Position numbers and translations under genes: made by a program. DNA of 64,000 nucleotides, from NCBI GenBank assembly GCA_009699865.1, contig WLNJ01000001.1:62001-126000 (forward strand). The letters run 5' to 3'. Position 1 is the first letter of the stretch; each line of letters starts with the position of its first letter. Origin of the DNA: Actinomycetota bacterium. Lineage in GTDB: Bacteria; Actinomycetota; Thermoleophilia; Solirubrobacterales; Solirubrobacteraceae. The notes under the pieces were generated by a model. The model searched no databases. It was not told the DNA's origin and was given only the letters and a program-made list of their open reading frames with translations. Below, one piece after another: positions 3,977 through 51,533 of the stretch.

Positions 3977-4017
3977 CCCATTGCTGTTGCATTGCGTCAG
4001 ACCGTCGGACTCTCCGG

Positions 4018-4023
4018 TAGCGT
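4018..4023 (+). promoter_or_regulatory. candidate internal leaderless -10 box before the first flippase
   Basis: GG-TAGCGT lies 7 bases before an in-frame TTG at 4031. It matches the box and spacing found at other unit starts and is the reason 4031 is preferred as the flippase start. A TTG leaderless start is unusual, so confidence is low. Confidence 0.35.
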
Positions 4024-4030
4024 CACGACC

Positions 4031-5452
4031 TTGCCTCATCAAGAACCCCCAATGCCGCCTGGAAACCGCTGGCCCGGACCACTGAAGCCGATAGTTGCAC
4101 GGCTTAGCGGAGCGGACACCCGCTATGCCGCGATCCTCGCAGGGGCGATGATCGCCACAAACCTCGTTGCACTCATCACCACCGTCGCGTTTGGCCGCCT
4201 GCTCCATGTCGAGGGCTACGGAGAGCTCGCTGCGATCCTCTCGACCTTCATCATCCTCAGCGTCCCAGGCGCGGCCCTGCAGGTGGCAACCGCTCGTGAG
4301 GGATCACTGGGCCACCTCGGTGAGGGACGGCAGTTCGCCACCACTCTCCGTCGCTGGACCATCACCCTTGCTTTCGTGACGCTCTTGGTTACCGCCGTAT
4401 CGATCATGCTGCGGCAACCACTTGCCACCATCATCGGGGTCGGCAAAGACCAAGAATGGGCCGCGGCCTTCGTGCCACCTGCCGCATGCGTTTGGATCCT
4501 GCTCTCAATCCAGAGAGGCGCGCTTCAGGCAACGCGCGCCTACCCAGCCGTCGGGCTGAGCATGGTGGCCGAGCAGGTTGCGCGACTTGTGCTTGGCGCC
4601 GGGATTGCCTTTGTCGTCGTCAAGAGCTTCAAGGTGACCGGCGCCTATCTAGGAACGCCGCTCGCGATGCTCACGATGAGTGTGATCCTTGGCTTCGTCC
4701 TGTCTAGAAGGCTCGGGAAGCACGAAAAGGCTCGTGTTGCCCACGGACTCCGCCGCCTGACCGCAGACGCATGGGTCGCCATCGTGGGACTGGCTCTGAT
4801 TGCAGTTCTTCAGAACGTCGATGTGATTGTTGCTCAGCACCGTCTCCACGGCACTAATGCCGGCTCTTACGCGGCTGCAGCAGTAGCTGCCAAGGTCGTT
4901 GTCTGGGTCGCTATCGGTATTGGCTTCTACCTTCTTCCCGAAGCGGCTCGTCGTCATGCCCTAGGCCAGGACGCCCGCCCCGTCCTACGCAAGGCAATGA
5001 TCATGACCGGGGCTGTTGCAGCTCCTTGTCTGATCGTCTACGCCGTCGTTCCAAAGCTACTTCTCGAGTTGGCATTCGGAGATAAGTACTCACAGGGGGC
5101 TGAAGCTCTATTTGACCTCGGCATTGCGATGGCTTTCCTCTCAGTCTGTTACCTCTCAGTGCAGCTGCTTCTTGCCATGCGCGAGGTGAAGTTCCTCTGG
5201 TTCCTAGCCGCGGTAGCCATCATCGAGCCCGCAGCGCTTCTATTTGGCCCGGGCGGCGATTCGGTCGTTGGCTTCGCGCGTACAGTTCTTGTAGTTCAGG
5301 TAATCGCCGCCACTGGTGCTTTTGCCGCAGCCTGGCATGCGTCAGCCCCACCGAAGGGCGGGGCTCACTTAGTTGCTGACGCTGACGTCGCCGCAGTCGG
5401 AGGCTTGGGAAGCAGCACTACCCAAGTTCCAAACCGCGCCAACTCTCTGTAG
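4031..5452 (+). CDS. polysaccharide flippase (oligosaccharide-flippase / MVF-MATE superfamily)
   Basis: This polytopic protein of about 473 residues has roughly 12-14 membrane segments and almost no large soluble domain. VAFGRLLHVEGYGELAAI near the N-terminus is the usual Wzx pattern (amphipathic repeat with G-R-x-L and E-Y/G-G). It probably moves polyprenyl-linked oligosaccharide across the membrane. Three starts are possible: TTG at 3992, TTG at 4031 (7 bases after a TAGCGT box) and ATG at 4052. None has a Shine-Dalgarno sequence, and I chose 4031. The last 88 bases overlap the convergent membrane protein gene on the minus strand. That part encodes a hydrophilic tail that is unlikely to matter for transport. 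Confidence 0.82.
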   Translation: MPHQEPPMPPGNRWPGPLKPIVARLSGADTRYAAILAGAMIATNLVALITTVAFGRLLHVEGYGELAAILSTFIILSVPGAALQVATAREGSLGHLGEGRQFATTLRRWTITLAFVTLLVTAVSIMLRQPLATIIGVGKDQEWAAAFVPPAACVWILLSIQRGALQATRAYPAVGLSMVAEQVARLVLGAGIAFVVVKSFKVTGAYLGTPLAMLTMSVILGFVLSRRLGKHEKARVAHGLRRLTADAWVAIVGLALIAVLQNVDVIVAQHRLHGTNAGSYAAAAVAAKVVVWVAIGIGFYLLPEAARRHALGQDARPVLRKAMIMTGAVAAPCLIVYAVVPKLLLELAFGDKYSQGAEALFDLGIAMAFLSVCYLSVQLLLAMREVKFLWFLAAVAIIEPAALLFGPGGDSVVGFARTVLVVQVIAATGAFAAAWHASAPPKGGAHLVADADVAAVGGLGSSTTQVPNRANSL

Positions 5453-6999
5453 CTCCGCTTCAGATACACGTCTAGAAGAGTCACCCCGCTCGACTTGCCG
5501 GCAAGATTCGGCTCGGGCGCAGCGGTGATGCCGGCCTCATAACGAACGACGGGCGCTCCCGTTGCTTCGAGAGCCGAGATGATCTCACGCTGGACTCGCT
5601 CGCTTGTAACAACGCCCGGGGCAGCAATGTCGTACCTAGTCACATTCTCACGCCCGGCGAGAACGTAGAAAAGAGGGGCGCCGGCCGTGACGAGGTCGGA
5701 TCTACGTGAGGCCACATAGATCGGACCTGGGGGTAATCTGCGAACGGCGCCCACTGCCGACTCGAGATCCGAAAGCAGACACATCTGAACCGGCTCTCCT
5801 CGGAGGGAGCAGCGGGTGCGAGGAAGCTCCCGAACTCCATCGGCGACTTGCAGGTTGATTCTCCGAGCGTGCTGGGCTTCCCGTACCTCCCGCTCGCGCT
5901 TCCAGACTGTGTCCGCAAGGCTCCAGCCAAGGCCTGCTAGGGCCCCAAGTGCTGCAAGTCCGGCGAGAGCCTTGCGCCATCCACCAGCTGCTGGTGACAC
6001 CTTCCAAGGGCGACTCCTGCGTGAGTCCACGACCGCTGAAATCGCCCAAGCACCCAGAACCGCATCCATCACCGCTAGCGGACCCGTATGGAAGGCGTCG
6101 GCGCGCACAACAAGGTAGTGCGCCATTCCAAAGCCAAAGACAAAGGTCGTGGCCTCAATCCAACGACCTTTCCTCTGCGTCAGCAGAAGGGCCGTACCGC
6201 TGGCCGCGAGAGTCAACAAGAGCGATAGAGGAAGGTGGTACGAGAGGAACTGGGCGACTAGGTCAAGCCCCTGCGCATTCCCACCCCCATCCCACACGAG
6301 TGGAAATGGAAGCGTCTGGTACTTGCTGAACTCAAGGACGGGATACCGGATCAGCAGATCCCACGAGTTACCCGCGCCAGCCGCAGCGACAAGGGGAACA
6401 TAAATGGCCGCAGCGGCTGCCAAAGCCGAGCCGACATATTGCAGCAGGGTCCGTCGGATTCCGCCTCGCAGCACTAGCCCGATCACAGACCCCAGCGCGA
6501 GATATGCCGCAAACTCAATCCTCCAGACCGAAACAAGTCCTGTGAAGACACCGGCGAGCCACGGCCGCTTCTCAAGCTGAAGAAGCGCTCCAAGGGCAAA
6601 CATGAGGGCAACCGGATACGGGTGAGGGCCAGTGGCAGAGCTGACCGCAAAGATTGAAACAGCCCAGGCCAGAAGGGCCGGCCATCGCCCGGCCCTTCTT
6701 CCCGCCAAACGCCACGCGAGAAGGGCGACCGTTGCATCCACAACCGCACGAATGACGCGCCAGGGAACGAGCGATGCCCCGGTCAGCTTCCACGCTGCTC
6801 CAAGAAGATAGACCTGTCCCGGCGGGTAGAACCACCAGAAGTCCCGGTAGGGAACTTGCCCTGCTGCTATTCGAGACGCAGCCTGCAGCATCAGGCCCTC
6901 GTCGTTGAGCTGGATCCAATCCTTCAAGGTCAGGAAGCCAATTCCAAGACCGATCAGCCAGAGGCACGCCCCGGGGGCTGCCTTCCTCAAGCGGCTCAT
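5365..6999 (-). CDS. GT-C-type integral membrane glycosyltransferase-like protein
   Basis: This protein of about 544 residues has roughly 10-11 membrane segments. After the first segment comes an acidic external loop, QLNDEGLMLQAASRIAAGQ, followed by VPYRDFWWFYPPGQVYLLG. This layout resembles the first periplasmic loop of GT-C enzymes (ArnT/PMT group), where a D/E is catalytic. The C-terminal 150 residues are soluble (PIYVASRRSDLVTAG). GT-C enzymes use polyprenyl-phosphate sugars outside the membrane; the sugar and acceptor here are unknown. The start is placed at the ATG forming a 4-base ATGA overlap with the upstream gene; an ATG three codons earlier (7008) is possible. Its 3' end overlaps the flippase gene by 88 bases. 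Confidence 0.72.
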   Translation of the reverse strand: MSRLRKAAPGACLWLIGLGIGFLTLKDWIQLNDEGLMLQAASRIAAGQVPYRDFWWFYPPGQVYLLGAAWKLTGASLVPWRVIRAVVDATVALLAWRLAGRRAGRWPALLAWAVSIFAVSSATGPHPYPVALMFALGALLQLEKRPWLAGVFTGLVSVWRIEFAAYLALGSVIGLVLRGGIRRTLLQYVGSALAAAAAIYVPLVAAAGAGNSWDLLIRYPVLEFSKYQTLPFPLVWDGGGNAQGLDLVAQFLSYHLPLSLLLTLAASGTALLLTQRKGRWIEATTFVFGFGMAHYLVVRADAFHTGPLAVMDAVLGAWAISAVVDSRRSRPWKVSPAAGGWRKALAGLAALGALAGLGWSLADTVWKREREVREAQHARRINLQVADGVRELPRTRCSLRGEPVQMCLLSDLESAVGAVRRLPPGPIYVASRRSDLVTAGAPLFYVLAGRENVTRYDIAAPGVVTSERVQREIISALEATGAPVVRYEAGITAAPEPNLAGKSSGVTLLDVYLKRSYRELARFGTWVVLLPKPPTAATSASATK

Positions 7000-8576
7000 G
7001 ATTTCCAACCCTTCAGCTCATAAACCCTTGCGCAGCCGTAGTTGGCTCGCTGGAGAAGCCTGGAACCCAGCACGTGGGTCAAATCAGACTGGTGGCCACA
7101 GTCGGAGTAGAGAAACCTCGCCCCACTCGAGTCAATCAGGCGCCGTGCAGATGAGAGGGACATCTGCCCTCGGAACAGCTTCTCCGCGGCCGCAACACGC
7201 GCTCGGAAGTCCGGGGTCCATGAGAGTTCCCCAACCCAGACAGGACGGCCGGTATGCGCCGGCACTGACAGCGCAGCTTTGATCGGTGCCAACACTCCCC
7301 CCGATCCCGGCTTGGAGGCAATTGCTTTCAGTGCCGCGTCTTCCCCCGGTTCGAGGAAGTAGGGCTGTGCTGAGCGGTGGATCTCGAGCCTCATCAGATT
7401 GAGACGGTGGACAGTTCCTGGGACACACATGATCAGACAGAGTCCCACCCCGAGCGGAAGTCTCGCCCGCCACCACTCCGCGTCCTTCAGAAGGAGCATC
7501 CCTTCGACGGCCAGGATGCCAAGGAAGAGGCTTATCCCCTGGACGGCGTGGAACGGAAAGGTGCCCGCATGGCTGAGTCCCACAAAGGCAAACTCTCCGA
7601 CCATCAGTAGCGGAACAACGCGCAGAGCCAGCGACTGCCAGTCAGATGGGCGCCGGCCGTACGCCCTGATGGCCGGAAGCCAAGGAAGCAACGTCAACGC
7701 CCAGACACCAAGGGACCAAAGGGGGACCCTGTTGTTGGCCTCAGCGGCTATCGCCCAGACATCTTCAGTCCCTGACAGCCATCGGTAGTAGATCAGCGGC
7801 GCCAGGGCGGCTAGTAGGAATGGGAGTCGCCGACGCAACAACGCCATACGGCCAAGCCCAACATCCGCCATAGCTAGGTCGCAGATCAGGACTGCGCCAA
7901 CAAGCTCTGCTCCTTGCCATGGCTGAAGCCACGAGCACAGAAAGGCCGTACCGCAGAGAAGAATTCCAGTCACCGCCGCGGAGTCGGGTCGAGTTGCCCG
8001 TTGGGCAAGCAGTAAGCCGATCACCATCAGCGCTACGGCAATGCCAGTCATCATGTACCCCCACATCCATGACGGGGCGAAGACCTCTCCGGCTGCGAAT
8101 TCAAGCTGCCCCCGAAAGCCACCAACCAACCGGTTCCAACTCCAGATCGCGCCAGCTGGACTGAGGCCGAACAGAGCAAGGGCTAATGCGGCTGTTCTCG
8201 CACCACCCTTTGGCAGCAACTCTCGGACATATGCCGCAAAGGCGGCCACCACAAGTGGGATTGCCAGAAGCTTCCAGAGCTGATAACTGAGTACAACATC
8301 AACGCCCGCACGATTCAAAAGGCCGGAGATCAGGAACCCAGGGTGGAAAAAAGCGCTGGACTGTTGAGCCGGTATCGACCACAGACTCCTGATTGAGAGG
8401 TGTTCCCCGGAGGAAACAACCCACGAGAGGTACTGGAGTTGGTCCGCTCCTACCTGGCTCTCCGCTCCAGTCAATATCCGACCTCGGGACAGGAGGGCTG
8501 CCATAACGGCGACGCTCACGAAGGCGAATGCCGCTCCTAGGAGGATCTCCCCCTTTGATGCTTTGAGGGACCTCAC
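6996..8576 (-). CDS. GT-C-like membrane protein, paralogue A of the five-member 'DQLQYL' family
   Basis: This protein of about 526 residues is the most divergent of the copies in the polysaccharide locus. Shared motifs in order are VGADQLQYLSWV and HPGFLISGL in the first external loop, WLQPWQGAELVG mid-protein, FPFHAVQG, VPGTVHR, then a soluble C-terminal domain with GELSWTPDFRAR, SSGARFLYSDC and YGCARVYELK. It has about ten membrane segments. The acidic residue in the first external loop and the soluble tail suggest a GT-C glycosyltransferase, but I do not recognise a named family. The start is GTG at 8576, overlapping the stop of the upstream GT2 gene (GTGA); a start at 8624 is less likely. 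Confidence 0.7.
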   Translation of the reverse strand: MRSLKASKGEILLGAAFAFVSVAVMAALLSRGRILTGAESQVGADQLQYLSWVVSSGEHLSIRSLWSIPAQQSSAFFHPGFLISGLLNRAGVDVVLSYQLWKLLAIPLVVAAFAAYVRELLPKGGARTAALALALFGLSPAGAIWSWNRLVGGFRGQLEFAAGEVFAPSWMWGYMMTGIAVALMVIGLLLAQRATRPDSAAVTGILLCGTAFLCSWLQPWQGAELVGAVLICDLAMADVGLGRMALLRRRLPFLLAALAPLIYYRWLSGTEDVWAIAAEANNRVPLWSLGVWALTLLPWLPAIRAYGRRPSDWQSLALRVVPLLMVGEFAFVGLSHAGTFPFHAVQGISLFLGILAVEGMLLLKDAEWWRARLPLGVGLCLIMCVPGTVHRLNLMRLEIHRSAQPYFLEPGEDAALKAIASKPGSGGVLAPIKAALSVPAHTGRPVWVGELSWTPDFRARVAAAEKLFRGQMSLSSARRLIDSSGARFLYSDCGHQSDLTHVLGSRLLQRANYGCARVYELKGWKS

Positions 8577-9472
8577 GACTCTCGCTCCAGCTGTGCATCG
8601 CGCCGGCCAACGCTGAAAGCCCAAGCAGCCCGACTGGCCCAGATCCGCTCAGCAAGAAACTGCGGAGCGATCTCTGCGATGGGGCTAAGGGCTGTGGCAA
8701 CCGCGGCCTTACAGCGCCGAAGTGGGGTCATGGGTGCGTGAGGGGGCACTAGGTCTGGAGCAACACGCTCTAGCTCAACACTGGCCCGTCCGACCTCCCG
8801 CATCCGCTCAGCTGTCGTCCTCGGCGTGTCTGACCGCAGGTGCCAAACCTCAGCCGACGGGTCGTGCTGAAGGCGCATCCCCACCGCATCGAGTCTAGAC
8901 GCGAGCTCAACATCCGTGAACCTTCTAAGCCGCTCATCAAAGGGTCCCGATACTCGACTCAGGAGTTCCCTTTTGACGCTTACATTTGCAGTGCAGAAGT
9001 GCTCTGGTGGTACCTCACCGTGATCGCCGATCGTGTCGAAGGCAAACAGTGGACCCCCCGTCTCAAGCCACCTCATATGGCGGGTGATGCGCTTGCGGGG
9101 ATCCCACAAGACTGGGCCACCCAGAGCCTCCTCAACTAACGGAAACTGCTCGTGAAAGAGCATGTGTTTAGCGACTAGGTCCGGAGTGACGACGATGTCG
9201 TCATCGATAAACAGGACTAGCGTCCCGCTCGCGGTCCCAAGCGCCGCGTTCCGGGCCGTACTGGAACCCGACCCGCTCCCCGGCACCGAAACCACCCTCA
9301 CTTGGGGAAAATCAGCCAGGACAGAGGGAGTGCCGTCCGTGGAGGAATCGTCCGCTACGAGAACCTCGTCTTGGTCAAAATCAACCTGCCCAACGACCGC
9401 CGTCAGGCACTCCCGCAGATCAGTGGCCCGGTTGTGGGTGGGAATGACGACTGAGAGGCGGGTTGTCCCCAT
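8573..9472 (-). CDS. GT2 family glycosyltransferase
   Basis: This is a 299-residue GT-A fold transferase. LSVVIPTHNRATDL opens the nucleotide-binding half, VADDSSTDGT follows, and LVLFIDDDIVVTPDL around residues 90-104 is the metal-binding DxD site. HFCTANVSVKRELLSRVSGPFDERLRRFTDVELASRL is the acceptor-side ED-type motif region of the family. It has no membrane segment and so is cytoplasmic or membrane-peripheral. It starts on the base after the stop of the upstream GT2 gene and overlaps the next gene by 4 bases. The donor sugar is not predictable. Confidence 0.85.
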   Translation of the reverse strand: MGTTRLSVVIPTHNRATDLRECLTAVVGQVDFDQDEVLVADDSSTDGTPSVLADFPQVRVVSVPGSGSGSSTARNAALGTASGTLVLFIDDDIVVTPDLVAKHMLFHEQFPLVEEALGGPVLWDPRKRITRHMRWLETGGPLFAFDTIGDHGEVPPEHFCTANVSVKRELLSRVSGPFDERLRRFTDVELASRLDAVGMRLQHDPSAEVWHLRSDTPRTTAERMREVGRASVELERVAPDLVPPHAPMTPLRRCKAAVATALSPIAEIAPQFLAERIWASRAAWAFSVGRRDAQLERES

Positions 9473-10477
9473 CTAGATGAGGAATCCGCGCTCGCGGATG
9501 CTTGCCTTGACCAGCACAGCCACTTCGGCAGCGTCGACCGGAAGCGTCTTGGGGAGACCCGAAAAGGTTCGCGCAAGGCCATCGGGATACCAGCCATTTC
9601 GCAGCGTTATGTAGGGAAGGGCCCAGAGCAGAAATGCCCGTCGTCCAGTCAGGCGCGCCAGAACAAGCCCGGCTACAGCCACAATCAGCCGAGAGTGGCT
9701 TTCCCGCCACACATACCCCCGCCACGGGAACGCGCCGCGCAGGTGCGGGTGGCTCTTGACGAGTGGAACTAGTGACGCCCATCGGCGCGTCCCGCGCATA
9801 GCCCGCTCGAATGAATGAATCTCCACCGAGTGGTTAACAACAGCATTCTCAGCAAAGACAGCCCCACAGCCCGTGGCCAGGGAACGCATGGCTAGGTCGG
9901 CGTCCTCTCCAGCCATCGCAATCCGCTGATCGAAGCCTCCTACTCTCTCGAGCAGAGCCTTCGGGTAGAACACATTGCATGTCTCAAAGAAGGGACCGAG
10001 GTGATCGACTCGGATTGAACGGGCAAGGGGTGTACGGAGATCAAGGTCGCTGTGAACATCAGGTCGGGTCTTTCCTTGTATGACCGAGCCTGGGAAAGCA
10101 AGGTGCGCGGCAAGCCCCTCTTCAAGCCAGGTTGGCTCAGGCCGGCAGTCATCATCAGTAAACGCGACTAGCGCTCCCCGAGCTTCGGGCCAACCCCGCT
10201 GTCGGGCACCCGCTGGACCCATCGAGGCTGGATTAGTCAGGAAGACATCCACGCGCCCCTTGACAACATCTGCAGTTGCATCTTGTGAGCCGTCGTCCAC
10301 GAGAATAATTTCGAACTGATCTCTTGGAAGACTCTGGCCTTCCAGTGCGTCTAGAAGGACTCCCACTTGGTGCGCACGATCGCGGGTTGCCACCACAACC
10401 GAAATGCGGATACCCGAGGCTCGAGAAGCCTTGGATTCAGCAGTTCTCTCGGGTGCTTTCTCGGCCTTGTCTCCCAC
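9473..10477 (-). CDS. GT2 family glycosyltransferase
   Basis: This is a 334-residue GT2 enzyme with an unstructured charged N-terminus of about 25 residues. It then has ISVVVATRDRAHQVGVLL, LVDDGSQDAT, and the DxD region VAFTDDDCRPEPTWL. ETCNVFYPKALLERVGGFD and GEDADLAMRSLATG match the acceptor half of rhamnosyl/galactosyl-type GT2 proteins. A hydrophobic stretch near residues 265-290 may anchor it to the membrane. It leads a four-gene minus-strand operon (GT2, GT2, paralogue A, GT-C). The start is GTG at 10477 with a TATTCT box 9 bases upstream. Confidence 0.84.
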   Translation of the reverse strand: MGDKAEKAPERTAESKASRASGIRISVVVATRDRAHQVGVLLDALEGQSLPRDQFEIILVDDGSQDATADVVKGRVDVFLTNPASMGPAGARQRGWPEARGALVAFTDDDCRPEPTWLEEGLAAHLAFPGSVIQGKTRPDVHSDLDLRTPLARSIRVDHLGPFFETCNVFYPKALLERVGGFDQRIAMAGEDADLAMRSLATGCGAVFAENAVVNHSVEIHSFERAMRGTRRWASLVPLVKSHPHLRGAFPWRGYVWRESHSRLIVAVAGLVLARLTGRRAFLLWALPYITLRNGWYPDGLARTFSGLPKTLPVDAAEVAVLVKASIRERGFLI

Positions 10478-10486
10478 TTATAGGGG

Positions 10487-10492
10487 AGAATA
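10487..10492 (-). promoter_or_regulatory. candidate -10 box of the minus-strand GT2 operon
   Basis: TATTCT on the minus strand lies 9 bases before the GTG at 10477. It is one half of a divergent promoter region only 54 bases long. Confidence 0.4.
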
Positions 10493-10518
10493 GACAGGGA
10501 ACCCGCTACCACCATCGG

Positions 10519-10524
10519 TACGCT
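10519..10524 (+). promoter_or_regulatory. candidate leaderless -10 box of the second flippase
   Basis: GG-TACGCT lies 7 bases before the ATG at 10532. The same GGTACGCT-N7-ATG arrangement occurs before the lipoprotein gene at 56579, which strengthens both. Confidence 0.5.
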
Positions 10525-10531
10525 CCGACTC

Positions 10532-12034
10532 ATGCAGGAGGACCGCTTTGAGTTTCCCCGGAATGAACTGAGGTCTCGCGCTGCGCGAGGCGCCATCATC
10601 AACGGCCTGTTCCTGCTGGCCGTGGAGTCGCTCGGACTCGTTCAAGCCGTGGTTGTTGCCCGGTTACTGAATGCTGACGAAGTTGGTCTCTACGGAATCG
10701 TCTCGGTAACTGTCATCACCCTGCTTGCCCTCAAGCAAGTCGGAATAGATGAGGCCTATGTTCAACAGGATGGCGACGATCAGGAGGCTGCCTTCCAGCA
10801 TGCGTTCAGCCTAGACCTCGCGCTCTCTGTGGGCTTTGCGATTCTCGTTGCCGCGCTTGCCCCAGTGATTGGACTTATCTACGGGGATTTCAGCCTCACC
10901 CCCCTCATGCTCGCACTGTCCCTGCTGCCGATCCTGTTCGCGATGCAAGCGCCCGCGTGGGTCTTTCTTAGGCGCATGGACTTCGTTCGCCAGAGGAGCC
11001 TGCAGGCGGTGGTGCCTGTGGTAACGCTCGGGGTCACCGTTGGTCTCATCATCAGTGGAATGGGAACTTGGGGACTGGTCATTGGTGCGCTTGCTGGCAA
11101 CGCCGCAGCGGCTGGAATGGCATTCAAGCTCAGCCCGTACAAGCTTGCTTGGCGGTACGACTCCCAGACAGCTCGGCGCTATCTCCACTTCAGTGCCCCG
11201 ATCTTCCTAGCGGCGATCTGTGGCCTCCTCATCCGACAGGGCCAAACCCTTGCCTTCGAGACCAAGCTCGGCCTCGCGGGGGCCGGCTATCTGACGCTTG
11301 CAATAACGCTCACCCGCTACGCAGATAGAGCGGACCAAATGATCACTCAAACCATCTACCCCGCGATCTGCGCAATCACGGACAAGCCCGAACGGTTGGC
11401 GGAGGTGTTCGAGAAGAGCAACCGCCTAACGGCAATGTGGGCACTTCCCTTTGGGGCTGGTCTCGCACTCTTCGCGGACGACCTCGTCCGCTTTGTACTG
11501 GGGGATAAATGGCGCCCTGCCATTGCCCTGATCCAGATCATGGGCGTCTCGACAGCGATCTATCAGCTTGGGTTCAACTGGACCGCGTTCTATAGGGCAC
11601 TAGGCCGCACCCGCCCGCAAACCGTCTACGCAATCACCGGGCTCGTCGTATTCGCAGCGGTTCCAATTCCACTCCTTTTTACTCACGGTGCCACAGCTTT
11701 TGCTTGGGGACTCTTCGCCGTTAATCTCGTCGCTGGCTTCCTCAGATGGATCTACATGAGGCAGCTTCTCCCGGGTGTTCGGATCGCACGGTTTGTCCTC
11801 AGAGCACTTATCCCACCTCTGATCGCCGCAGTACCGATTCTCCTCTGGCGAGAGCAGTTCACTGCTGAGGGCGGCGTCAGCACCTTTGCGCTCCAGCTCC
11901 TCCTCTTCGCAACCACCTACCTGCTGTGCACCGCTGCTATGGAGAGAGTCCTTCTGAGAGAGGCCGTGAGCTACCTGCGGCGGCGCTCGGACTCGAGCGG
12001 GCCCGGCAGTCCAACTCCGACAGTGGTGGTCTGA
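10532..12034 (+). CDS. lipopolysaccharide/teichuronic-type flippase (PST family, WzxC-like)
   Basis: This is a 500-residue polytopic protein. Its start resembles the PST branch of polysaccharide exporters (WzxC/TuaB): GAIINGLFLLAVESLGLVQAVVVARLLNADEVGLYGI, with the basic N-terminus RSRAARG. It shows about 14 hydrophobic segments, KSNRLTAMWALPFGAGLALFADDLVRFVLGDKW late in the protein, and a basic cytoplasmic C-terminus. It belongs to a different branch from the flippase at 4031, so the locus may export two glycans or glycan intermediates. A glycosyltransferase gene follows after 2 bases. Confidence 0.85.
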   Translation: MQEDRFEFPRNELRSRAARGAIINGLFLLAVESLGLVQAVVVARLLNADEVGLYGIVSVTVITLLALKQVGIDEAYVQQDGDDQEAAFQHAFSLDLALSVGFAILVAALAPVIGLIYGDFSLTPLMLALSLLPILFAMQAPAWVFLRRMDFVRQRSLQAVVPVVTLGVTVGLIISGMGTWGLVIGALAGNAAAAGMAFKLSPYKLAWRYDSQTARRYLHFSAPIFLAAICGLLIRQGQTLAFETKLGLAGAGYLTLAITLTRYADRADQMITQTIYPAICAITDKPERLAEVFEKSNRLTAMWALPFGAGLALFADDLVRFVLGDKWRPAIALIQIMGVSTAIYQLGFNWTAFYRALGRTRPQTVYAITGLVVFAAVPIPLLFTHGATAFAWGLFAVNLVAGFLRWIYMRQLLPGVRIARFVLRALIPPLIAAVPILLWREQFTAEGGVSTFALQLLLFATTYLLCTAAMERVLLREAVSYLRRRSDSSGPGSPTPTVVV

Positions 12035-12036
12035 TC

Positions 12037-13209
12037 ATGCGACTCCTCTATGTCTTGGAGCGATACCCGGAGCTCTCCCAAACCTTTGTCGCTCAGGAGA
12101 TCTTGGGACTACAGGAGCTCGGCTGCGAGGTCCGCGTAGTGACGCTCTCTCAGGGTCTCTCGGCCGCTGCTCCGGCGCGAGCACGGACGGCTGATCAGGC
12201 TGGTAGAGCCAAACGCTTGACAGCCCTTCTTCGCCAAGGTTTCCAAGCACCCCTTGCCACGCTTAGCCAGCTTGCGAGGGAGCCCAACTGGCCGCCACCC
12301 AGCGGAACCGCACGGATACGAGGAGCCTTGCGAATAGCCCCCTTTGTAGAGGACGCTAAGTGGGCAGACCACATCCACTCCCACTTCGCAACCGAAGCTG
12401 CCGATATCGGCCGCCTTCTCGGCCGAGCAACGCGCACCCCTTTCTCCTTCACTGCCCACGGGGCAGACGCCTATTCCAAATCAGCGCAGCTTGCGCTGAA
12501 CATCCGAGCTGCTTCATTTGCGCGGGCTGCATCGCCTCATGTCGCAGAGATGCTCCGGAATGCCGCGCCGGACAGCCCCTCTGCTGAGCGCGTAATCGAG
12601 ATTCCAGTTGCGGTTGACACTGAACGGTTCGCCTCCCCGACCCCCTACCGGGCAGCCGGGGATGTGATCAGCATCGGCCGGCTCGTTGAGAAGAAGGGCT
12701 TCTCAACACTGATCTCTGCCTTTGCATCGGTTCAGGACTCAGAATCCCTTCGCGGCCGAGCCCTCCGCGTGATCGGCGATGGTCCTCTCCGGGCTAGCCT
12801 TGAAGCGCAGGCAACCGCCGAAGGGGCCCGCGTCTCTTTCCTTGGGTCACTTCCACACGATCAGCTGATGGAACATGTTTGGGGTGCTGCGCTATTTGCA
12901 CTCACCCCTCAAGTCACGGCAGACGGAGACCGCGACGGGCGCCCAACAGTGTTGATTGAGGCGATGGCCGCCGGGCTCCCGGTCCTGTCGACTTCCATTC
13001 CAGGGATTGATGACCTCGTTACTTCTGCAATTGGAACCCTCGCTGAGCCTGGAAACATAACTTCAGTCGGCCTGAGCCTAGTTTCGCTGCTTGGACTCCC
13101 CCCAGAGACTCGGCAGAGAATGGGCGAGCAAGGTATCTCAGTGGCAATCCCGTATGGCAGGACCGAAGTAGCTAAGGAGATCCTTGAGGCCTTCCAGGAC
13201 GGACGCTGA
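12037..13209 (+). CDS. GT4 family glycosyltransferase (WcaL-like)
   Basis: This is a 390-residue GT-B fold enzyme. The N-terminal domain begins MRLLYVLERYPELSQTFVAQEI, a pattern typical of colanic-acid WcaL-type transferases. HSHFATEAADIGRL and FSFTAHGADAY follow. The C-terminal donor domain has GRLVEKKGFSTLISAF, VIGDGPLRASLEAQA and the GT4 signature RPTVLIEAMAAGLPVLSTSIPGIDDLV. The ATG at 12037, two bases after the flippase stop, is clearly better than longer upstream starts, which would lie inside the flippase gene. It probably adds a sugar to the lipid-linked unit the flippase handles. Donor unknown. Confidence 0.86.
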   Translation: MRLLYVLERYPELSQTFVAQEILGLQELGCEVRVVTLSQGLSAAAPARARTADQAGRAKRLTALLRQGFQAPLATLSQLAREPNWPPPSGTARIRGALRIAPFVEDAKWADHIHSHFATEAADIGRLLGRATRTPFSFTAHGADAYSKSAQLALNIRAASFARAASPHVAEMLRNAAPDSPSAERVIEIPVAVDTERFASPTPYRAAGDVISIGRLVEKKGFSTLISAFASVQDSESLRGRALRVIGDGPLRASLEAQATAEGARVSFLGSLPHDQLMEHVWGAALFALTPQVTADGDRDGRPTVLIEAMAAGLPVLSTSIPGIDDLVTSAIGTLAEPGNITSVGLSLVSLLGLPPETRQRMGEQGISVAIPYGRTEVAKEILEAFQDGR

Positions 13210-13232
13210 CAGAGCCCTTGCCGTCCTCCCCG

Positions 13233-14852
13233 CTACTTAAGAACGTAGACCGTCGCGCACCCAAAGCGATGCTCTGAAGCGAGCAGAGGACCGAGGGCAG
13301 TGGCAAGAGACGGAAGCGTCCCGGTTAGGCCAGTGCAGTTCACGAAGATGTACCTAGCCCCGGTCGAACGAACCACCTGCTGGGTAGCGGCCGGCGGATA
13401 GACACCCAGGAAGACTGCCGCAGCAAGATTCGCACGCTCCTGCCAGTCAGGCGACCAAGATCTCGGACCCACATAGGCCTCCTGGCCGCTGTAGGCGGGC
13501 ACAAGCATTCCTCCATAAGGGTCTGCCAGAACCTTCCCGCGAGGGGCAGCATCGAGAAACCTCAAAGCCTCCTGCTCGGACGGAGAGATGTAATACGGGA
13601 AATAGCCCTTATCAACGTTGTCTGAGGCCATCCTCATCCGATGGACCGTCCCGGGGACTGACAGGGCTAGAACCACTGGGACAACCCACCACCAGCGAGG
13701 GCGCGGCAGCCAGGCCGGACGACCACTCCCAAAGCATTGGACGGCTAGAACTGCCAGGGGAAGCGCGAGTCCTTGAAAAGAGTGATAGGGAAAAGTGCCG
13801 AAAGGCTGAAGATAAACCACCAAAACGGCAACCGGCCAGAATCGCACTGCGATCTCTTGCCACCCGTCAGCCCTCTTGTGGAGGGAGATCAGCGCCGGGA
13901 TGGCGAGCGGCGCCACGGTCAGTGCGATGGCCCAGAGTGGCCAGTCCCAGTGAGCCTGGGCTCCCCGCTTGTTCATCTCACCAGCCAACTTCCATGATGG
14001 GTCTCTCGCTGCCACAGCCGCGTAATAGATAGCCGGGATCAGGCCGGCAGTCACGACCCAGAAAAGCCGAAGATCCGGTCGCGTGTCCCTCCTCCACCAC
14101 CGGAAGCCCTCTACCAGGAGGACGATCCCGATTAACTCGGCTCCCTGCCATGGCTGAAGCCAAGTAACTAAGAGGGCCCCTGCTGACGCAAGCGCGATGC
14201 GGGCGGCACCTTCGGCCTCTCGGGCCCGCTCAATCAGCAGAAGCACTAGCGGCAGGAGAAACACTGCAATAGCACCGAACTCGTACCCCATCAGCAACTG
14301 CCCCGTCCACATCTCAGATGAGATGAAGTCAAGGCTGTAACGGACTGAGTCGCCAGCTCCAATCCAGTTGGCCAACGTGCTCCAGCCCATCAGGGTAAAG
14401 AGGGCCAAAAGCATTGCGGTTCGCTGAGCCCAAGGTCCAACTATCAAGCGCCGACAGTACTGCCGTATGCCGAAGAAGACAACAATCACAGCAATGGGTT
14501 TCCAGACCGCCGTATACGCCTCAGGGAGCGGAACCCCAAGCCCTCGATGGAGCCATCCGGAGATCAAGTAACCCGGGTGGAGAAACACCCTGTGGTCTGG
14601 CCTAAAGTCGAACAGGTTCCCGACCAGCCAATGGTCCCCCGCGTCCCGTACCCAGGCGAGGTACTGAAGCTGATCGACTGTGAAAAGACCATCACCACCA
14701 CTCAGGTGCCTTCCGGTCAGCAGCAACGGCAACATCACCATCATCGAGAGCGCTCCCGTAGCGAGAAGAAAGACGCCGTCAAACCAGTCGAACCGTCGGG
14801 CTGATCCGCCGGCAGGAGCCGGTTTCTTTGGATCGTCCACCATGGCGCTCAC
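13233..14852 (-). CDS. GT-C-like membrane protein, paralogue B of the five-member family
   Basis: This is a 539-residue polytopic protein, the third and last of three tandem paralogues behind the methyltransferase-GT2 gene. Conserved blocks are FTVDQLQYLAWVRDAGDHWL, HRVFLHPGYLISGW, WLQPWQGAELIG, FPYHSFQG, VPGTVHRMR, and a soluble tail with YPYY-type FPYYISPSEQEALRFL, SWSPDWQERA, STGARYIFVNC and FGCATVYVLK. The GTG start overlaps the stop of paralogue C (GTGA). About ten membrane segments and an acidic first external loop fit a GT-C fold. The activity is inferred, not shown. Confidence 0.72.
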   Translation of the reverse strand: MSAMVDDPKKPAPAGGSARRFDWFDGVFLLATGALSMMVMLPLLLTGRHLSGGDGLFTVDQLQYLAWVRDAGDHWLVGNLFDFRPDHRVFLHPGYLISGWLHRGLGVPLPEAYTAVWKPIAVIVVFFGIRQYCRRLIVGPWAQRTAMLLALFTLMGWSTLANWIGAGDSVRYSLDFISSEMWTGQLLMGYEFGAIAVFLLPLVLLLIERAREAEGAARIALASAGALLVTWLQPWQGAELIGIVLLVEGFRWWRRDTRPDLRLFWVVTAGLIPAIYYAAVAARDPSWKLAGEMNKRGAQAHWDWPLWAIALTVAPLAIPALISLHKRADGWQEIAVRFWPVAVLVVYLQPFGTFPYHSFQGLALPLAVLAVQCFGSGRPAWLPRPRWWWVVPVVLALSVPGTVHRMRMASDNVDKGYFPYYISPSEQEALRFLDAAPRGKVLADPYGGMLVPAYSGQEAYVGPRSWSPDWQERANLAAAVFLGVYPPAATQQVVRSTGARYIFVNCTGLTGTLPSLATALGPLLASEHRFGCATVYVLK

Positions 14853-16555
14853 CTGACGATTGGCTTTCCTACCCGGGCAGAGACCCGGTCAGATCTCCCC
14901 GTGGGTTTCAGAACGTAGACCCGCGCACAACCGAACGTATGCACCGATTGCACGAGTTGACCAAGTTCGTGGGACAGCGAAAGCGGCGGCTCTACACGAC
15001 CCTGACACTCCTGAAATACATATCTTGCCCCCGTCGACTTAACGAACCGCTGGGCGTATCTAGGCCGTAGCTGATCACCAAAGAAGGCTCCCGTTACGCG
15101 CGCCCTGAGCTCCCACGATGGCGTCCAAGAGAACGGCCCGAGGTACACCTCCCTGCCTGCATAGGGAGCCACAAGAAGGCCCCCGTACGAAGATGCCAAG
15201 ACAGCTCCCGGTCGGTTGTCACGCTCAAGCCAGGATAGGGCAGCCTCCTCGCCGGAAAAGATGTAATACGGGTAGGCGACATTGTGGATGTTGTTGCGGA
15301 CCAAGCGGACTTTGTGAGCCGTCCCAGGGATGATGAACAGGGCCAAGACTGGGACAACCCAGATCCAGTGTGGTTTAGGAACCCACTTCGGCCGGTGGAC
15401 CGTAAGGCCTTGAACCGCAAGGATCCCCAGTGGAAGTGTTAGCCCCTGAACCGAGTGGTAGGGGAAGGTCCCAAAAGGCTGGAAGAAAACAGCCAGTACG
15501 GCAAATGGCCAGACCCGCACGGCAACCTGCTGCCAATCGTCAGCACGACGGCCCAGTCCGAGTGCCGCCGGGATCAGAAGTGGAAGAAGAGTTATTGCCA
15601 CCATCCAAAGAGGCCACTCCCAGAGTGGCTGCGCTCCCGCCGCATTGGCCTTGCCGGCAAGCTCCCATGAGGAGTCAGTTGCAGACAAAACCGCGTAGTA
15701 CACCGCCGGCAAGCCACTGACTACAAGCACAGGAGTAAGGCGCCAGGCAATGGGCTCCTTATCTCGAACCCTGCGCCAAAGCTCTACGGCCACGATGATC
15801 AGGATCAGCTCTGCTCCTTGCCACGGCTGGAGCCACATCACCCAAGCCCCACCAGCCGCGCACGCGGTCAGGAGCGCTCGGTGTCCACCTTGCCTCCCCC
15901 TCTCTACACCAAGCAAGACCAACGGCATAGCAAATACGGCAACCGCGGTCATCATGTACCCGAGCAGGGTCTGGACTGTCCAGAGCTCCCCAGATATGAA
16001 GTCAAGCTGGTACTGACCCGGAGCACCACCCCATCCTGTCGTCTTTGCAAGCCCACTCCAAGGCATCACAACGAAAAGGGCAATAACAAGCCCGACCCTC
16101 GCAGGCCAGCCCCTAGGAAGCAGCCTACGTGTGTACTTCAGGCAGCCAACGAAGGCAACCGCAACAGCAAGCGGCTTCCATACGGCAATAAACGAGACGG
16201 CAAGTGATGCTCCCAGCCAGCGGTGGACTATTCCGGACAGCAGAAACCCCGGGTGGAGGAAGACCCGATGGTCGGTCCTCATGTCGAACTCGTTTCCAAT
16301 CAGCCAGTGATCCCCGGCCTCACGAATCCAAGTCAGGTACTGCATCTGATCTGGGGGGAACAGGCCATCTGCCCCGCTGAGCATCCGGCCCTTGAGAAGC
16401 AAGGGGGCAAGGACAACCATTGACAGGAGTGTGAGCAGGGCGAGGCACAGCCAGTCAAACCAGTCGAGACTCAAATACCGGTTCGCGATCAGCGGGTGGG
16501 CTCCCGCGTCCGTTATCTCGGGACTCACCGAGCCACTCTTACGGTCAGCCTCCAT
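14849..16555 (-). CDS. GT-C-like membrane protein, paralogue C of the five-member family
   Basis: This is a 568-residue protein. It carries LDWFDW just before the first membrane segment (also in paralogue D), FPPDQMQYLTWIREAGDHWL, HRVFLHPGFLLSG, WLQPWQGAELI, PAVYYAVLSATDSSWELAGK, FPYHSVQG, IPGTAHK, and the C-terminal YPYYIFSGEEAAL, GPFSWTPSWELRAR, STGARYVFQEC, FGCARVYVLK. The end of paralogue D overlaps its start by 11 bases. It is nearly collinear with paralogues B and D, so recent local duplication is likely. Differences cluster in the middle membrane segments, which may set donor or acceptor choice. Confidence 0.74.
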   Translation of the reverse strand: MEADRKSGSVSPEITDAGAHPLIANRYLSLDWFDWLCLALLTLLSMVVLAPLLLKGRMLSGADGLFPPDQMQYLTWIREAGDHWLIGNEFDMRTDHRVFLHPGFLLSGIVHRWLGASLAVSFIAVWKPLAVAVAFVGCLKYTRRLLPRGWPARVGLVIALFVVMPWSGLAKTTGWGGAPGQYQLDFISGELWTVQTLLGYMMTAVAVFAMPLVLLGVERGRQGGHRALLTACAAGGAWVMWLQPWQGAELILIIVAVELWRRVRDKEPIAWRLTPVLVVSGLPAVYYAVLSATDSSWELAGKANAAGAQPLWEWPLWMVAITLLPLLIPAALGLGRRADDWQQVAVRVWPFAVLAVFFQPFGTFPYHSVQGLTLPLGILAVQGLTVHRPKWVPKPHWIWVVPVLALFIIPGTAHKVRLVRNNIHNVAYPYYIFSGEEAALSWLERDNRPGAVLASSYGGLLVAPYAGREVYLGPFSWTPSWELRARVTGAFFGDQLRPRYAQRFVKSTGARYVFQECQGRVEPPLSLSHELGQLVQSVHTFGCARVYVLKPTGRSDRVSARVGKPIVR

Positions 16556-18242
16556 CAGGCCCTCCCAGCTCGGACGAGACGCGGTCAGACTTGGCGGACC
16601 GCTTCAGCACATAGACGCGCGCGCAGCCAAAATCATGGGTGCTGAGAATGATCGGTCCCAGCTCCCTGCCCAGCGACGTGGCCGGCTGGGCATTGCCATG
16701 GCAGGCTTGGAAGATGAACCTTGCTCCCGTTGATTCCACTGCTGCCTGAGCTGCGGCAGGGCTCATAAAATTCCCAAAGATTGCTCCGACTGGCAGTGCC
16801 CTCTGAAAGTAGTTCGGTGTCCAAGAGAATGGTCCCATGAGCGCCTCTCGCCCAGTGTAGGCGGGGATTAACAGCCCTCCATATTCATCAGTCATGACAC
16901 CGCCTGGCTGAGGGTCAACCTCAAGAAAGCGCAGTGCCCGCTTCTCGCCTGGAGCGATGTAATACGGGTAGGCAACCTTGTTGATTTGGTTGTACGCGCT
17001 CCACATCTTGTGGATCGTCCCTGGGACTGAAAGAAAGAGCAGGACTGGCACAACCCACCAAAACGCTGGTCGGGGAACCCAGCGGGGACGGTAGGAAGTC
17101 ATGCCCTGCGCCGCCAATACGCCGATAGGGAACATTAGGCCTTGTGCTGAATGGAACGGGAAGGTCCCGAATGGCTGCAGAAAGACAATCAGGGCTGCCA
17201 GTGGCCAGAACCTAACTGCCGCCTGCCCCCAACTCAAGTCCTTGCGCCTCAACGCGAATAGAGCAGGAATACCCAAGGGCGCGAGGGTGAGGAGAACCAC
17301 CCACCAAGGCCAGCCCCAGAGTGGACTTCCGTCAGCTTGGTTCACCTCACCAGCCAACTTCCATGCTGCATCCGTCTTAGACAGGAGTGCGTAGTAGACC
17401 GCTGGGATGGCCCCGGCCACAAATAGCCAGAGCAATCCAATGTCGATGGACTTTCCGTAACGCCAACGCCGGAACACCTCCACAAAGCCGATGATCAAGA
17501 GTGTCTCCCCTCCCTGCCAAGGCTGGAGCCACATCACAAGCCCCGAGCCAAGCGACAGCAGGACCAGCAGGCGGGTACTACCGTCACCAGAGCTGCGCTT
17601 GGCCACCCCGAGGAGCACGAACACCATCAGGGCGATTGCTATCGCCGTCATGGAATAGCCCTGCAATGGCTGCACGGTCCAAATCTCGCCGGACATGAAG
17701 TCCAGCTTCAGGCCCCAGATGTAGTTGTTACGTCGATTTCCAATGTCGAAGAACTTCACCAGCCCGCTCCATGGCATAACAGCGAACAGCACAATGAAGA
17801 TGGCCCCTCTGCGAGCCCAAGTCCCAACGACAAGGTGCCTGACCCAACAGAGGGCCGCAGCGAAAGTGAGCACTGCGGCAACTGGTTTCCAGAGGGCAGC
17901 GTAGGCGGCCTGGATTGGAACACCCAACCGGAATAAGAGTCCCGAGATTAGAAAGCCGGGATGCAGAAAGACGCGTGAATCAGGGGAGAAGTCCCAGCGG
18001 TTACCGATCAGCCCGTGATTACCCGCCTCTCTAATCCAGGTCAGGTACTGCAACTGGTCGAGGGCTACAGGACTTTCACCCCCACTCCAGGTCCTCCCTT
18101 TGAGCAGCAGCGGCACCACGATCGCGAATGAGGCGACGACTACACCTGCAAACGCACTCCAGTCGAACCAGTCAAGTCCGAGCTCCCTCCGCTGCCGAGG
18201 GGTGCTCAAGGACGGTCCAGCATCAGCGGGCAGCGCGCTCAT
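16545..18242 (-). CDS. GT-C-like membrane protein, paralogue D of the five-member family
   Basis: This 565-residue protein is the first of three tandem paralogues, 24 bases downstream of the methyltransferase-GT2 fusion gene. Blocks: LDWFDW, VALDQLQYLTWIREAGNHGL (about residues 60-79), HPGFLISGL, WLQPWQGGETLL, PAVYYALLSKTDAAWKLAGE, FPFHSAQG, VPGTIHK, YPYYIAPGEKRALRFL, GPFSWTPNYFQRA, STGARFIFQAC, FGCARVYVLK. It has one variation in an otherwise fixed block: QGGE instead of QGAE. As a GT-C-like protein it would use lipid-phosphate sugars, and the gene upstream looks able to make such a donor. That link is inference from position and fold. Confidence 0.74.
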   Translation of the reverse strand: MSALPADAGPSLSTPRQRRELGLDWFDWSAFAGVVVASFAIVVPLLLKGRTWSGGESPVALDQLQYLTWIREAGNHGLIGNRWDFSPDSRVFLHPGFLISGLLFRLGVPIQAAYAALWKPVAAVLTFAAALCWVRHLVVGTWARRGAIFIVLFAVMPWSGLVKFFDIGNRRNNYIWGLKLDFMSGEIWTVQPLQGYSMTAIAIALMVFVLLGVAKRSSGDGSTRLLVLLSLGSGLVMWLQPWQGGETLLIIGFVEVFRRWRYGKSIDIGLLWLFVAGAIPAVYYALLSKTDAAWKLAGEVNQADGSPLWGWPWWVVLLTLAPLGIPALFALRRKDLSWGQAAVRFWPLAALIVFLQPFGTFPFHSAQGLMFPIGVLAAQGMTSYRPRWVPRPAFWWVVPVLLFLSVPGTIHKMWSAYNQINKVAYPYYIAPGEKRALRFLEVDPQPGGVMTDEYGGLLIPAYTGREALMGPFSWTPNYFQRALPVGAIFGNFMSPAAAQAAVESTGARFIFQACHGNAQPATSLGRELGPIILSTHDFGCARVYVLKRSAKSDRVSSELGGPDGG

Positions 18243-19982: not shown

Positions 19983-19991
19983 CGAGCCGAA

Positions 19992-19997
19992 AGAGTA
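19992..19997 (-). promoter_or_regulatory. candidate -10 box of the methyltransferase-GT2/paralogue operon
   Basis: TACTCT on the minus strand is 9 bases before ATG 19982. If real, it leads the operon of the fusion gene and paralogues D, C and B, and it excludes the longer TTG start at 20012. Confidence 0.4.
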
Positions 19998-20049
19998 GCC
20001 GTCTGAGCGCAACCGCGTGTCACCTGCAGCACAACTCCCCCCGGAGGCC

Positions 20050-23337: not shown

Positions 23338-23443
23338 CCCATTTTGTCTGGCTCCTCAGAGCTGGAACGGTACAGCGCACCGGTACTGCCTACTTGGAAA
23401 TGGAAAGATTTGGCAAACATGTGGCACATATCCGCTTGTCGGC

Positions 23444-23452
23444 TGTAATACT
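23444..23452 (+). promoter_or_regulatory. candidate extended -10 element of the first hydrolase gene
   Basis: TGT-AATACT (TGn plus a -10-like hexamer) ends 7 bases before the ATG at 23460. This again suggests a leaderless or nearly leaderless transcript. The hexamer departs from TANNNT at its first base. Confidence 0.35.
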
Positions 23453-23459
23453 CGGCCCC

Positions 23460-45046: not shown

Positions 45047-45055
45047 TGGACGGGG

Positions 45056-45061
45056 AGGGTA
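45056..45061 (-). promoter_or_regulatory. candidate -10 box of rpsA
   Basis: GC-TACCCT on the minus strand, 9 bases before ATG 45046. It sits in the 38-base gap after the transporter gene and would separate rpsA from the polA operon. Confidence 0.45.
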
Positions 45062-45084
45062 GCGGGATCCGGCGCCCAACGAGT

Positions 45085-51459: not shown

Positions 51460-51467
51460 TGCCGGAG

Positions 51468-51473
51468 ACGCTA
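51468..51473 (-). promoter_or_regulatory. candidate leaderless -10 box of polA
   Basis: GG-TAGCGT on the minus strand, 8 bases before ATG 51459. It would lead the unit polA, paralogue E, acyltransferase and transporter. Confidence 0.48.
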
Positions 51474-51533
51474 CCGTCGCCGGCGGCCGCCCGCCGCGCA
51501 CGCCTCGATGATCCACGCCGACCAACGGCTGCG

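What the first reader, a model, noticed from the sequence alone, without database searches (positions are those of the whole stretch)
6996..18242. Multicopy family of GT-C-like membrane proteins without a recognisable name
Four copies (A 6996, B 13233, C 14849, D 16545) lie in this locus and a fifth (E) at 47240. All share, in order, a D-Q-[LM]-Q-Y-L block and HPG[FY]L[IL]SG in the first external loop, WLQPWQG, FP[YF]H[AS]xQG, [VI]PGT[VAI][HY][RK], and a soluble tail with SWTP, STGAR[YF]xF and FGCARVYVLK. B, C and D are tandem. The acidic first loop and soluble tail fit a GT-C fold, but I cannot tie the family to a known enzyme. Gene amplification suggests each copy adds a different sugar or branch to one glycan.
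Basis: partly seen in the sequence, partly recalled or inferred. Interest (0 to 1): 0.78.

Follow-up and report, generated by a model that had tools for sequence, protein, structure and literature searches.

The report
Unnamed family of membrane sugar transferases
A small-genome actinobacterium carries seven copies of a membrane protein that no database names; its predicted shape shows it to be a sugar-attaching enzyme of the GT-C type, probably used with a neighbouring enzyme to decorate a polysaccharide on the cell surface.

Summary
Five paralogues (A-E) are in the window and two more lie elsewhere in the same 1.70 Mb Solirubrobacterales genome. No Pfam or NCBIfam family and no PDB sequence matches them. 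An AlphaFold model (pLDDT 90) matches GT-C_A enzymes throughout: STT3, AftA, PMT, ArnT, PglB. An aspartate invariant in 57 of 57 homologues sits at the tip of the first juxtamembrane helix, where GT-C_A enzymes keep their catalytic Asp. The family is not an oligosaccharyltransferase: WWDYG and TIXE are absent. It was found only in Solirubrobacterales and close kin. B, C and D are a genus-specific tandem triplication; E is an older paralogue; A is a divergent genus-specific copy. All six copies tested are under purifying selection. The D-C-B operon starts with a methyltransferase fused to a polyprenyl-phosphate-sugar-synthase-like GT2. Where genomes carry that fusion without this family, a PMT_2-type or GT-C-looking protein usually sits next to it. 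Best explanation: extracytoplasmic sugar transferases of a three-component decoration system on a Wzx/Wzy-type surface glycan. This is a new sequence family of a known kind. Donor, acceptor and division of labour among copies remain unproven.

The parts
6996..8624 (-). family copy A (542 aa; its start codon is uncertain because it overlaps the upstream GT2 by 52 bp); genus-specific divergent copy
13233..14852 (-). family copy B (539 aa), third of the tandem; overlaps C by 4 bp
14849..16555 (-). family copy C (568 aa), second of the tandem; overlaps D by 11 bp; the modelled protein
16545..18242 (-). family copy D (565 aa), first of the tandem; starts 24 bp after the MT-GT2 stop codon
47240..48871 (-). 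family copy E (543 aa), older paralogue; in an E-acyltransferase-DMT transporter gene string
16205..16387 (-). copy C external loop 1 (residues 57-117) with D69 (codon 16349-16351), Y73 and the HPG block; predicted catalytic loop with two juxtamembrane helices
   Evidence: model; conservation
15986..15988 (-). copy C E190 in external loop 2, acidic in 55 of 57 homologues
15455..15457 (-). copy C H367 in the loop between TM9 and TM10 (GTFPYH), conserved in 56 of 57
14906..15271 (-). copy C extracytoplasmic C-terminal domain (residues 429-550) with invariant C517 and C543; resembles the C-terminal globular domain of archaeal AglB
18267..20012 (-). fused SAM methyltransferase (about residues 97-250) and GT2 domain (about 326-550) resembling polyprenyl-phosphate sugar synthases; first gene of the MT-GT2, D, C, B string; candidate donor maker
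5365..7008 (-). second GT-C-like membrane protein without Pfam family (NDEG motif), directly after copy A and after family members in other genera
3992..5452 (+). Wzx/MATE-type polysaccharide exporter (Polysacc_synt), flippase candidate
10532..12034 (+). Wzx/MATE-type polysaccharide exporter (Polysacc_synt_3), flippase candidate
2120..3976 (+). Wzy/O-antigen ligase-type membrane protein
8573..10477 (-). two GT2 glycosyltransferases (8573-9472, 9473-10477) upstream of copy A
46005..47243 (-). acyltransferase 3 directly after copy E; neighbour conserved in other genera
45085..46008 (-). DMT-family (YdcZ-like) transporter after the acyltransferase; possible small flippase for copy E (inference)

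Best explanation
The family is a sequence-novel group of GT-C_A glycosyltransferases. Each protein has 11 predicted transmembrane helices, two juxtamembrane helices in the first external loop, and an extracytoplasmic C-terminal domain with two invariant cysteines (a disulfide is inferred). The invariant Asp of the D-x-x-Q-Y-L block (D69 in C) is inferred to be the catalytic base at the tip of the first juxtamembrane helix. The Tyr four residues later, the acidic residue of external loop 2 and the His of the TM9-TM10 loop would help to position substrates and hold the donor phosphate. The donor is most likely a polyprenyl-phosphate monosaccharide. For the D-C-B operon it is most likely made by the methyltransferase-GT2 fusion protein encoded first in the string, and flipped by a MATE or DMT-type transporter of the locus. 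The acceptor is most likely the surface glycan built by the surrounding Wzx/Wzy and GT2/GT4 genes. Shown: homology, fold (as a prediction), conservation, gene context, purifying selection. Inferred: chemistry, donor, acceptor, and that B, C and D differ in acceptor or linkage.
For: AlphaFold2 model of C at pLDDT 90.1, pTM 0.90. Foldseek's top 36 PDB matches are all GT-C proteins, with probability 1.00 for STT3, AglB, ArnT, AftA, AftD and PglB; transporters appear only at probability about 0.1. VIA-align: Z 18.6 with STT3 (8age_A, 460 residues, rmsd 5.7), 18.1 with AftA (473 residues, rmsd 5.8), 15.2 with ArnT (436 residues, rmsd 6.3); the C-terminal domain matches AglB 3vu0 at Z 8.5, rmsd 2.9, 111 residues, 19% identity. 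D69 57/57, Y73 57/57, E/D190 55/57, H367 56/57, C517 and C543 57/57. GT-C_A enzymes share TM1-7 plus JM1 and JM2, with the essential Asp at the tip of JM1 and TM3 usually kinked (PMC12041299); the model shows all of these. In PimE the base D58 is followed four residues later by an essential Tyr (Y62) that hydrogen-bonds to it, and H322 binds the phosphate (PMC12041525). D69 lines up with the DE catalytic Asp of PMT_2 proteins in profile alignment (weak, 14%, against 0.3% or less for unrelated controls). The MT-GT2 gene neighbours family members across genera. The high-scoring members occur with the fusion in 18 of 18 genomes, 5 genera. In genomes with the fusion but without the family, the gene next to it is usually a PMT_2-type or GT-C-looking membrane protein. 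Orthologues in a sister species: dN/dS 0.03-0.10.
Against: No member has a demonstrated activity. Profile-profile similarity to PMT_2 families is weak (2.7-14%). The GT2 domain of the fusion matches AglJ and PpgS models only below their cut-offs (86 vs 325 bits, 57 vs 370). The MT-GT2 fusion also occurs in 14 genomes without the family, and 20 genomes with lower-scoring family members lack the fusion, so the partnership is not obligatory for the whole family. Copies A and E are not next to the fusion gene.
Confidence: 0.76

Rival explanations
1. It is an oligosaccharide transferase: like STT3/AglB/PglB it moves a whole glycan from a polyprenyl-pyrophosphate carrier onto a protein or another glycan.
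For: STT3 chains are the best structural matches, and the C-terminal domain resembles that of AglB. The EL1 Asp plus EL2 acid plus EL5 layout is similar.
Against: WWDYG occurs in 0 of 57 sequences, the TM9-TM10 loop has H and no TIXE/SVSE motif, and 11 rather than 13 TM helices are predicted. No gene in the own genome reaches PF02516. Pmt4 and AftA match about as well (Z 18.5 and 18.1).
Confidence: 0.12
2. It is a GT-C-fold protein that has lost catalysis and acts as a scaffold or lipid-substrate binder, like PIG-U in GPI transamidase.
For: PIG-U also appears in the fold matches at Z 9.9. Paralogue families often contain inactive members.
Against: D69 is invariant in all 57 members including every paralogue, and the catalytic loops are the best conserved parts (EL5 80-87% and EL1 60-69% among B, C and D against about 50% overall).
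Confidence: 0.06
3. It is a transporter or flippase of lipid-linked sugars.
For: Polytopic membrane protein in a polysaccharide locus that needs flippases.
Against: Transporter folds match at probability about 0.1 while GT-C folds match at 1.00. The locus has its own Wzx/MATE genes.
Confidence: 0.02
4. It is a GT-C transferase, but B, C and D are redundant dosage copies rather than specialised ones.
For: External loops 1 and 5 are much more alike than the rest, so donor and chemistry may be the same.
Against: About 50% divergence, each copy separately kept in a sister species with dN/dS 0.03-0.07, and distinct branches at 100/100 support.
Confidence: 0.15

Closest known systems
GT-C_A glycosyltransferases as a fold class (ArnT GT83, PMT GT39, AftA/AftB/Emb, PimE GT87, STT3 GT66)
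   Same: TM1-7 plus JM1/JM2 module, Asp at the tip of JM1, kinked TM3, extracytoplasmic domain after the last helix; structure matches Z 14-18.6 for STT3, PMT, AftA, ArnT and PglB
   Different: no match to any GT-C family of Pfam or NCBIfam at E up to 1 and none to a PDB GT-C sequence; own EL1 motif DxxQYLxW, WLQPWQG and GTFPYH blocks, invariant cysteine pair
STT3/AglB/PglB oligosaccharyltransferases (GT66)
   Same: best structural hits; C-terminal domain like AglB 3vu0 (Z 8.5); acid in EL1 and EL2
   Different: no WWDYG, no TIXE/SVSE, 11 instead of 13 TM helices
Three-component extracytoplasmic glycosylation (GtrA/GtrB/Gtr; Citrobacter youngae ORF12-15 with GT136; PMC11127046)
   Same: locus has a lipid-P-sugar-synthase-like GT2, MATE-type transporters and a GT-C enzyme; GT136 was likewise founded for a GT-C enzyme without sequence similarity to known GT families
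   Different: the candidate donor maker is a GT2 fused to a SAM methyltransferase, not a polyprenyl-phosphoribose synthase; three tandem GT-Cs follow it; a second GT-C type lies beside copy A
PMT_2 (PF13231) proteins of Solirubrobacterales
   Same: in genomes without this family a PMT_2-type protein often sits next to the same MT-GT2 fusion gene; catalytic Asp lines up in profile alignment
   Different: profile-profile probability only 2.7-14%; no shared Pfam match

Membership tests
GT-C_A fold glycosyltransferases | seven-TM core with two juxtamembrane helices between TM1 and TM2 | tested here: met
   model helices TM1 32-54, JM1 67-82, JM2 102-114, TM2 118-145; structural matches; definition PMC12041299
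GT-C_A fold glycosyltransferases | essential Asp at the tip of JM1 | tested here: met
   D69 at the N-terminal end of helix 67-82, 57/57; position and conservation only, essentiality itself not tested
GT-C_A fold glycosyltransferases | kinked TM3 split in two helices | tested here: met
   helices 150-161 and 166-173
GT-C_A fold glycosyltransferases | transfer of sugar from a polyprenyl-phosphate donor | not testable with these tools
   no biochemical data; supported only by context
STT3/AglB/PglB oligosaccharyltransferases (GT66) | WWDYG motif in the C-terminal domain | tested here: not met
   0 of 57; motif definition PMC8342417
STT3/AglB/PglB oligosaccharyltransferases (GT66) | TIXE/SVSE motif in external loop 5 | tested here: not met
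   loop reads GTFPYH or GNxATH in the members inspected, no TIXE/SVSE
STT3/AglB/PglB oligosaccharyltransferases (GT66) | DXD-type motifs in EL1 and EL2 | tested here: inconclusive
   single invariant D69 in EL1 and E/D190 in EL2, no clear DXD
STT3/AglB/PglB oligosaccharyltransferases (GT66) | 13 TM helices | tested here: not met
   11 TM helices in the predicted model
Named GT-C sequence families of Pfam and NCBIfam (PMT, PMT_2, STT3, Glyco_transf_22 and others) | match above curated cut-off | tested here: not met
   no GT-C family at E up to 1 for 24 members in Pfam; NCBIfam none at 0.01
CAZy GT families by CAZy's own profiles | CAZy assignment | not testable with these tools
   no CAZy library available
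Three-component extracytoplasmic glycosylation system | GT-C enzyme encoded with a polyprenyl-phosphate sugar synthase | tested here: inconclusive
   MT-GT2 gene 24 bp upstream of D, neighbour conserved across genera; its GT2 resembles AglJ and PpgS below cut-off; activity unknown
Three-component extracytoplasmic glycosylation system | dedicated flippase (GtrA/SMR or MATE) | tested here: inconclusive
   two MATE-type Wzx genes in the locus and a DMT gene near E, which may instead serve the repeat unit or something else

The most novel reading that the evidence does not exclude
A new GT-C family working with a bifunctional methyltransferase-GT2 enzyme that makes a methylated lipid-phosphate sugar, which three tandem specialised transferases then place at different positions of a surface glycan outside the membrane.
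Probability: 0.22. Interest if true: 0.6.

Novelty: new member of a known kind. Interest (0 to 1): 0.42.

Why it matters
GT-C enzymes are hard to find by sequence, and a functionally proven orphan can found a new CAZy family (GT136 is the recent example, PMC11127046). This family was absent from the Pfam and NCBIfam libraries searched, is multicopy in a 1.7 Mb genome, and keeps a conserved partner gene, which makes its donor directly testable. It would add a surface-glycan decoration system for Solirubrobacterales; my literature searches found nothing specific on their GT-C enzymes. A member with a chromosome sequence from a named strain exists (Svornostia abyssi J379).

Tried and rejected
Pfam, NCBIfam and PDB sequence searches gave only noise hits. 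Search for STT3 (PF02516) in the own genome: none. Profile-profile comparison with three PMT_2 groups (2.7, 14 and 7%) and with the 5365-7008 family (44%) gave low probabilities, above controls (0.3% or less) but no proof of a specific kinship. A loose search of 200 class genomes found only short weak hits outside the order. Of 396 phylum genomes only three matched, all in the own family. Transporter hypothesis: rejected by fold. Reading the whole repertoire as one recent amplification: rejected by the tree. Literature searches for the family, for Solirubrobacterales GT-C enzymes and for a methyltransferase fusion found nothing specific. The neighbour 5365-7008 was modelled only moderately (pLDDT 70), yet its best Foldseek hits are GT-C enzymes.
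Full report
What is there. Five ORFs of 539-568 codons on the minus strand form one protein family: A 6996-8624, B 13233-14852, C 14849-16555, D 16545-18242, E 47240-48871. C shares 51% identity with B and D, 38% with E and 35% with A over the whole length. Two more copies lie on other contigs of the same genome (31% each), which makes seven in 1,697,948 bases at 92% completeness.

No sequence name. At E up to 1 neither Pfam nor NCBIfam gives more than noise for any copy. The same holds for 24 members from related genomes, and a profile of 24 members finds no GT-C chain in the PDB (only a bacteriorhodopsin at E 0.13).

Fold. AlphaFold2 on the 24-member alignment gives pLDDT 90.1 and pTM 0.90. 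Foldseek's first 36 PDB hits are all GT-C fold proteins: STT3, AglB, PglB, ArnT, AftA, AftB, AftD, Emb, DPY19, Pmt4, PimE. The first transporter comes at rank 37 with probability 0.08. VIA-align gives Z 18.6 for STT3 (460 residues, rmsd 5.7), 18.5 for Pmt4 (342 residues, rmsd 4.4), 18.1 for AftA (473 residues, rmsd 5.8), 15.2 for ArnT. Residues 430-550 alone match the C-terminal globular domain of AglB (3vu0, Z 8.5, rmsd 2.9, 19% identity).

Active-site anatomy. In 57 non-identical homologues D69 and Y73 are invariant, residue 190 is E or D in 55, H367 is present in 56, C517 and C543 in all. In the model D69 lies at the start of the first helix after TM1 (67-82), a second juxtamembrane helix follows (102-114), and TM3 is split in two (150-161, 166-173). 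These are the published marks of GT-C_A enzymes, whose essential Asp sits at the tip of JM1 (PMC12041299). In PimE the base D58 is followed at +4 by Y62, which hydrogen-bonds to it and is essential, while H322 binds the donor phosphate (PMC12041525). The D69/Y73 spacing is the same; an equivalent role for H367 is an inference, because no superposition could be made. Conserved arginines cluster at the predicted cytoplasmic ends (143, 144, 152, 219, 221, 335), which agrees with the topology that puts these loops and the C-terminal domain outside.

Not an oligosaccharyltransferase by motif. WWDYG is absent from all 57, the loop that should hold TIXE/SVSE reads otherwise, and 11 rather than 13 TM helices are predicted (motif definitions PMC8342417). 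It resembles STT3 in fold but fails these tested membership features.

Distribution and history. A scan of 84,980 species genomes found 39 loci whose titles mostly name Solirubrobacterales or Thermoleophilia; some carry only general actinobacterial titles and three are titled Bifidobacterium breve, probably wrongly. Within the order 38 of 219 genomes have it; in an even sample of the phylum 3 of 396, all from the own family. The tree puts B, C and D, with their orthologues in sister species, in one genus-specific clade (100/100), sister to the copy found in that position in other genera. E belongs to an older clade whose members lie beside an acyltransferase in several other genera. A is a genus-specific long branch. 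Comparison with orthologues in the sister species G001 gives dN/dS 0.03-0.10 for the six copies tested, so these copies are functional.

Context. Genes around A-D encode a Wzy/ligase-type protein, two Wzx/MATE exporters, two GT2, several GT4 and a DegT aminotransferase: a surface polysaccharide locus. The string MT-GT2, D, C, B is close-packed (24 bp gap, then 11 and 4 bp overlaps). The first gene encodes a SAM methyltransferase fused to a GT2 that resembles dolichyl/polyprenyl-phosphate sugar synthases (AglJ 86 bits, PpgS 57 bits, both below cut-off). The fusion gene neighbours family members in several genera. In 219 genomes, those with high-scoring family members (18 genomes, 5 genera) all carry the fusion, against 14 of 201 others. 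This grouping was chosen after seeing the data and the genomes are related, so the Fisher p of 5e-18 is only descriptive. In the fusion-bearing genomes without the family that I looked at, the gene next to the fusion was a PMT_2 protein above cut-off in two (L101, L103) and below cut-off in two more (L097, L102); two others have a large membrane-protein-like neighbour without a Pfam match (L098, L104), in L099 a weak PMT_2 protein lies one gene further on, and L100 showed no such neighbour. This swap is the best evidence that the fusion feeds a GT-C enzyme.

Mechanism proposed. The GT2 domain charges polyprenyl phosphate with a sugar (the methyltransferase domain may methylate it), a MATE or DMT transporter flips it, and the GT-C copies transfer it outside the membrane to the glycan, as in three-component systems (PMC11127046). 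Shown: family, fold prediction, conservation, context, selection. Inferred: all chemistry. Among B, C and D the loops EL5 (80-87%) and EL1 (60-69%) are better conserved than the rest, which fits a common chemistry and perhaps a common donor, with differences elsewhere; it does not show different sugars.

Assessment.

Noticed in passing
window 5365-7008 (-): A second membrane protein without Pfam match, with an invariant NDEG motif; it follows a family copy in this genome and in several other genera. Its model (pLDDT 70) matches GT-C enzymes (STT3, AftA, ALG9, ArnT), so it is probably another orphan GT-C family.
   Followed up: partly
window 18267-20012 (-): A SAM methyltransferase fused to a polyprenyl-phosphate-sugar-synthase-like GT2 domain, full length in 30 of 219 Solirubrobacterales genomes (split over contigs in two more) and often beside a GT-C-type gene.
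   Followed up: partly
window 43577-51525 (-): Copy E, an acyltransferase and a DMT-type transporter lie, with 4-bp overlaps, between polA and a gene with S1 domains (rpsA-like).
   Followed up: no
window 23319-24863 and 24924-26183 (+): Two paralogous secreted proteins that look like glycoside hydrolases by eye (WQIWNEPD motif) but have no Pfam match at E 0.01.
   Followed up: no
whole genome G000: A 1.7 Mb genome with 11 PMT_2 matches besides the seven family copies: a heavy load of GT-C-type enzymes for a small genome.
   Followed up: no
L038, L041, L049: Records titled Bifidobacterium breve carry Solirubrobacterales-type loci; the titles are probably wrong.
   Followed up: no
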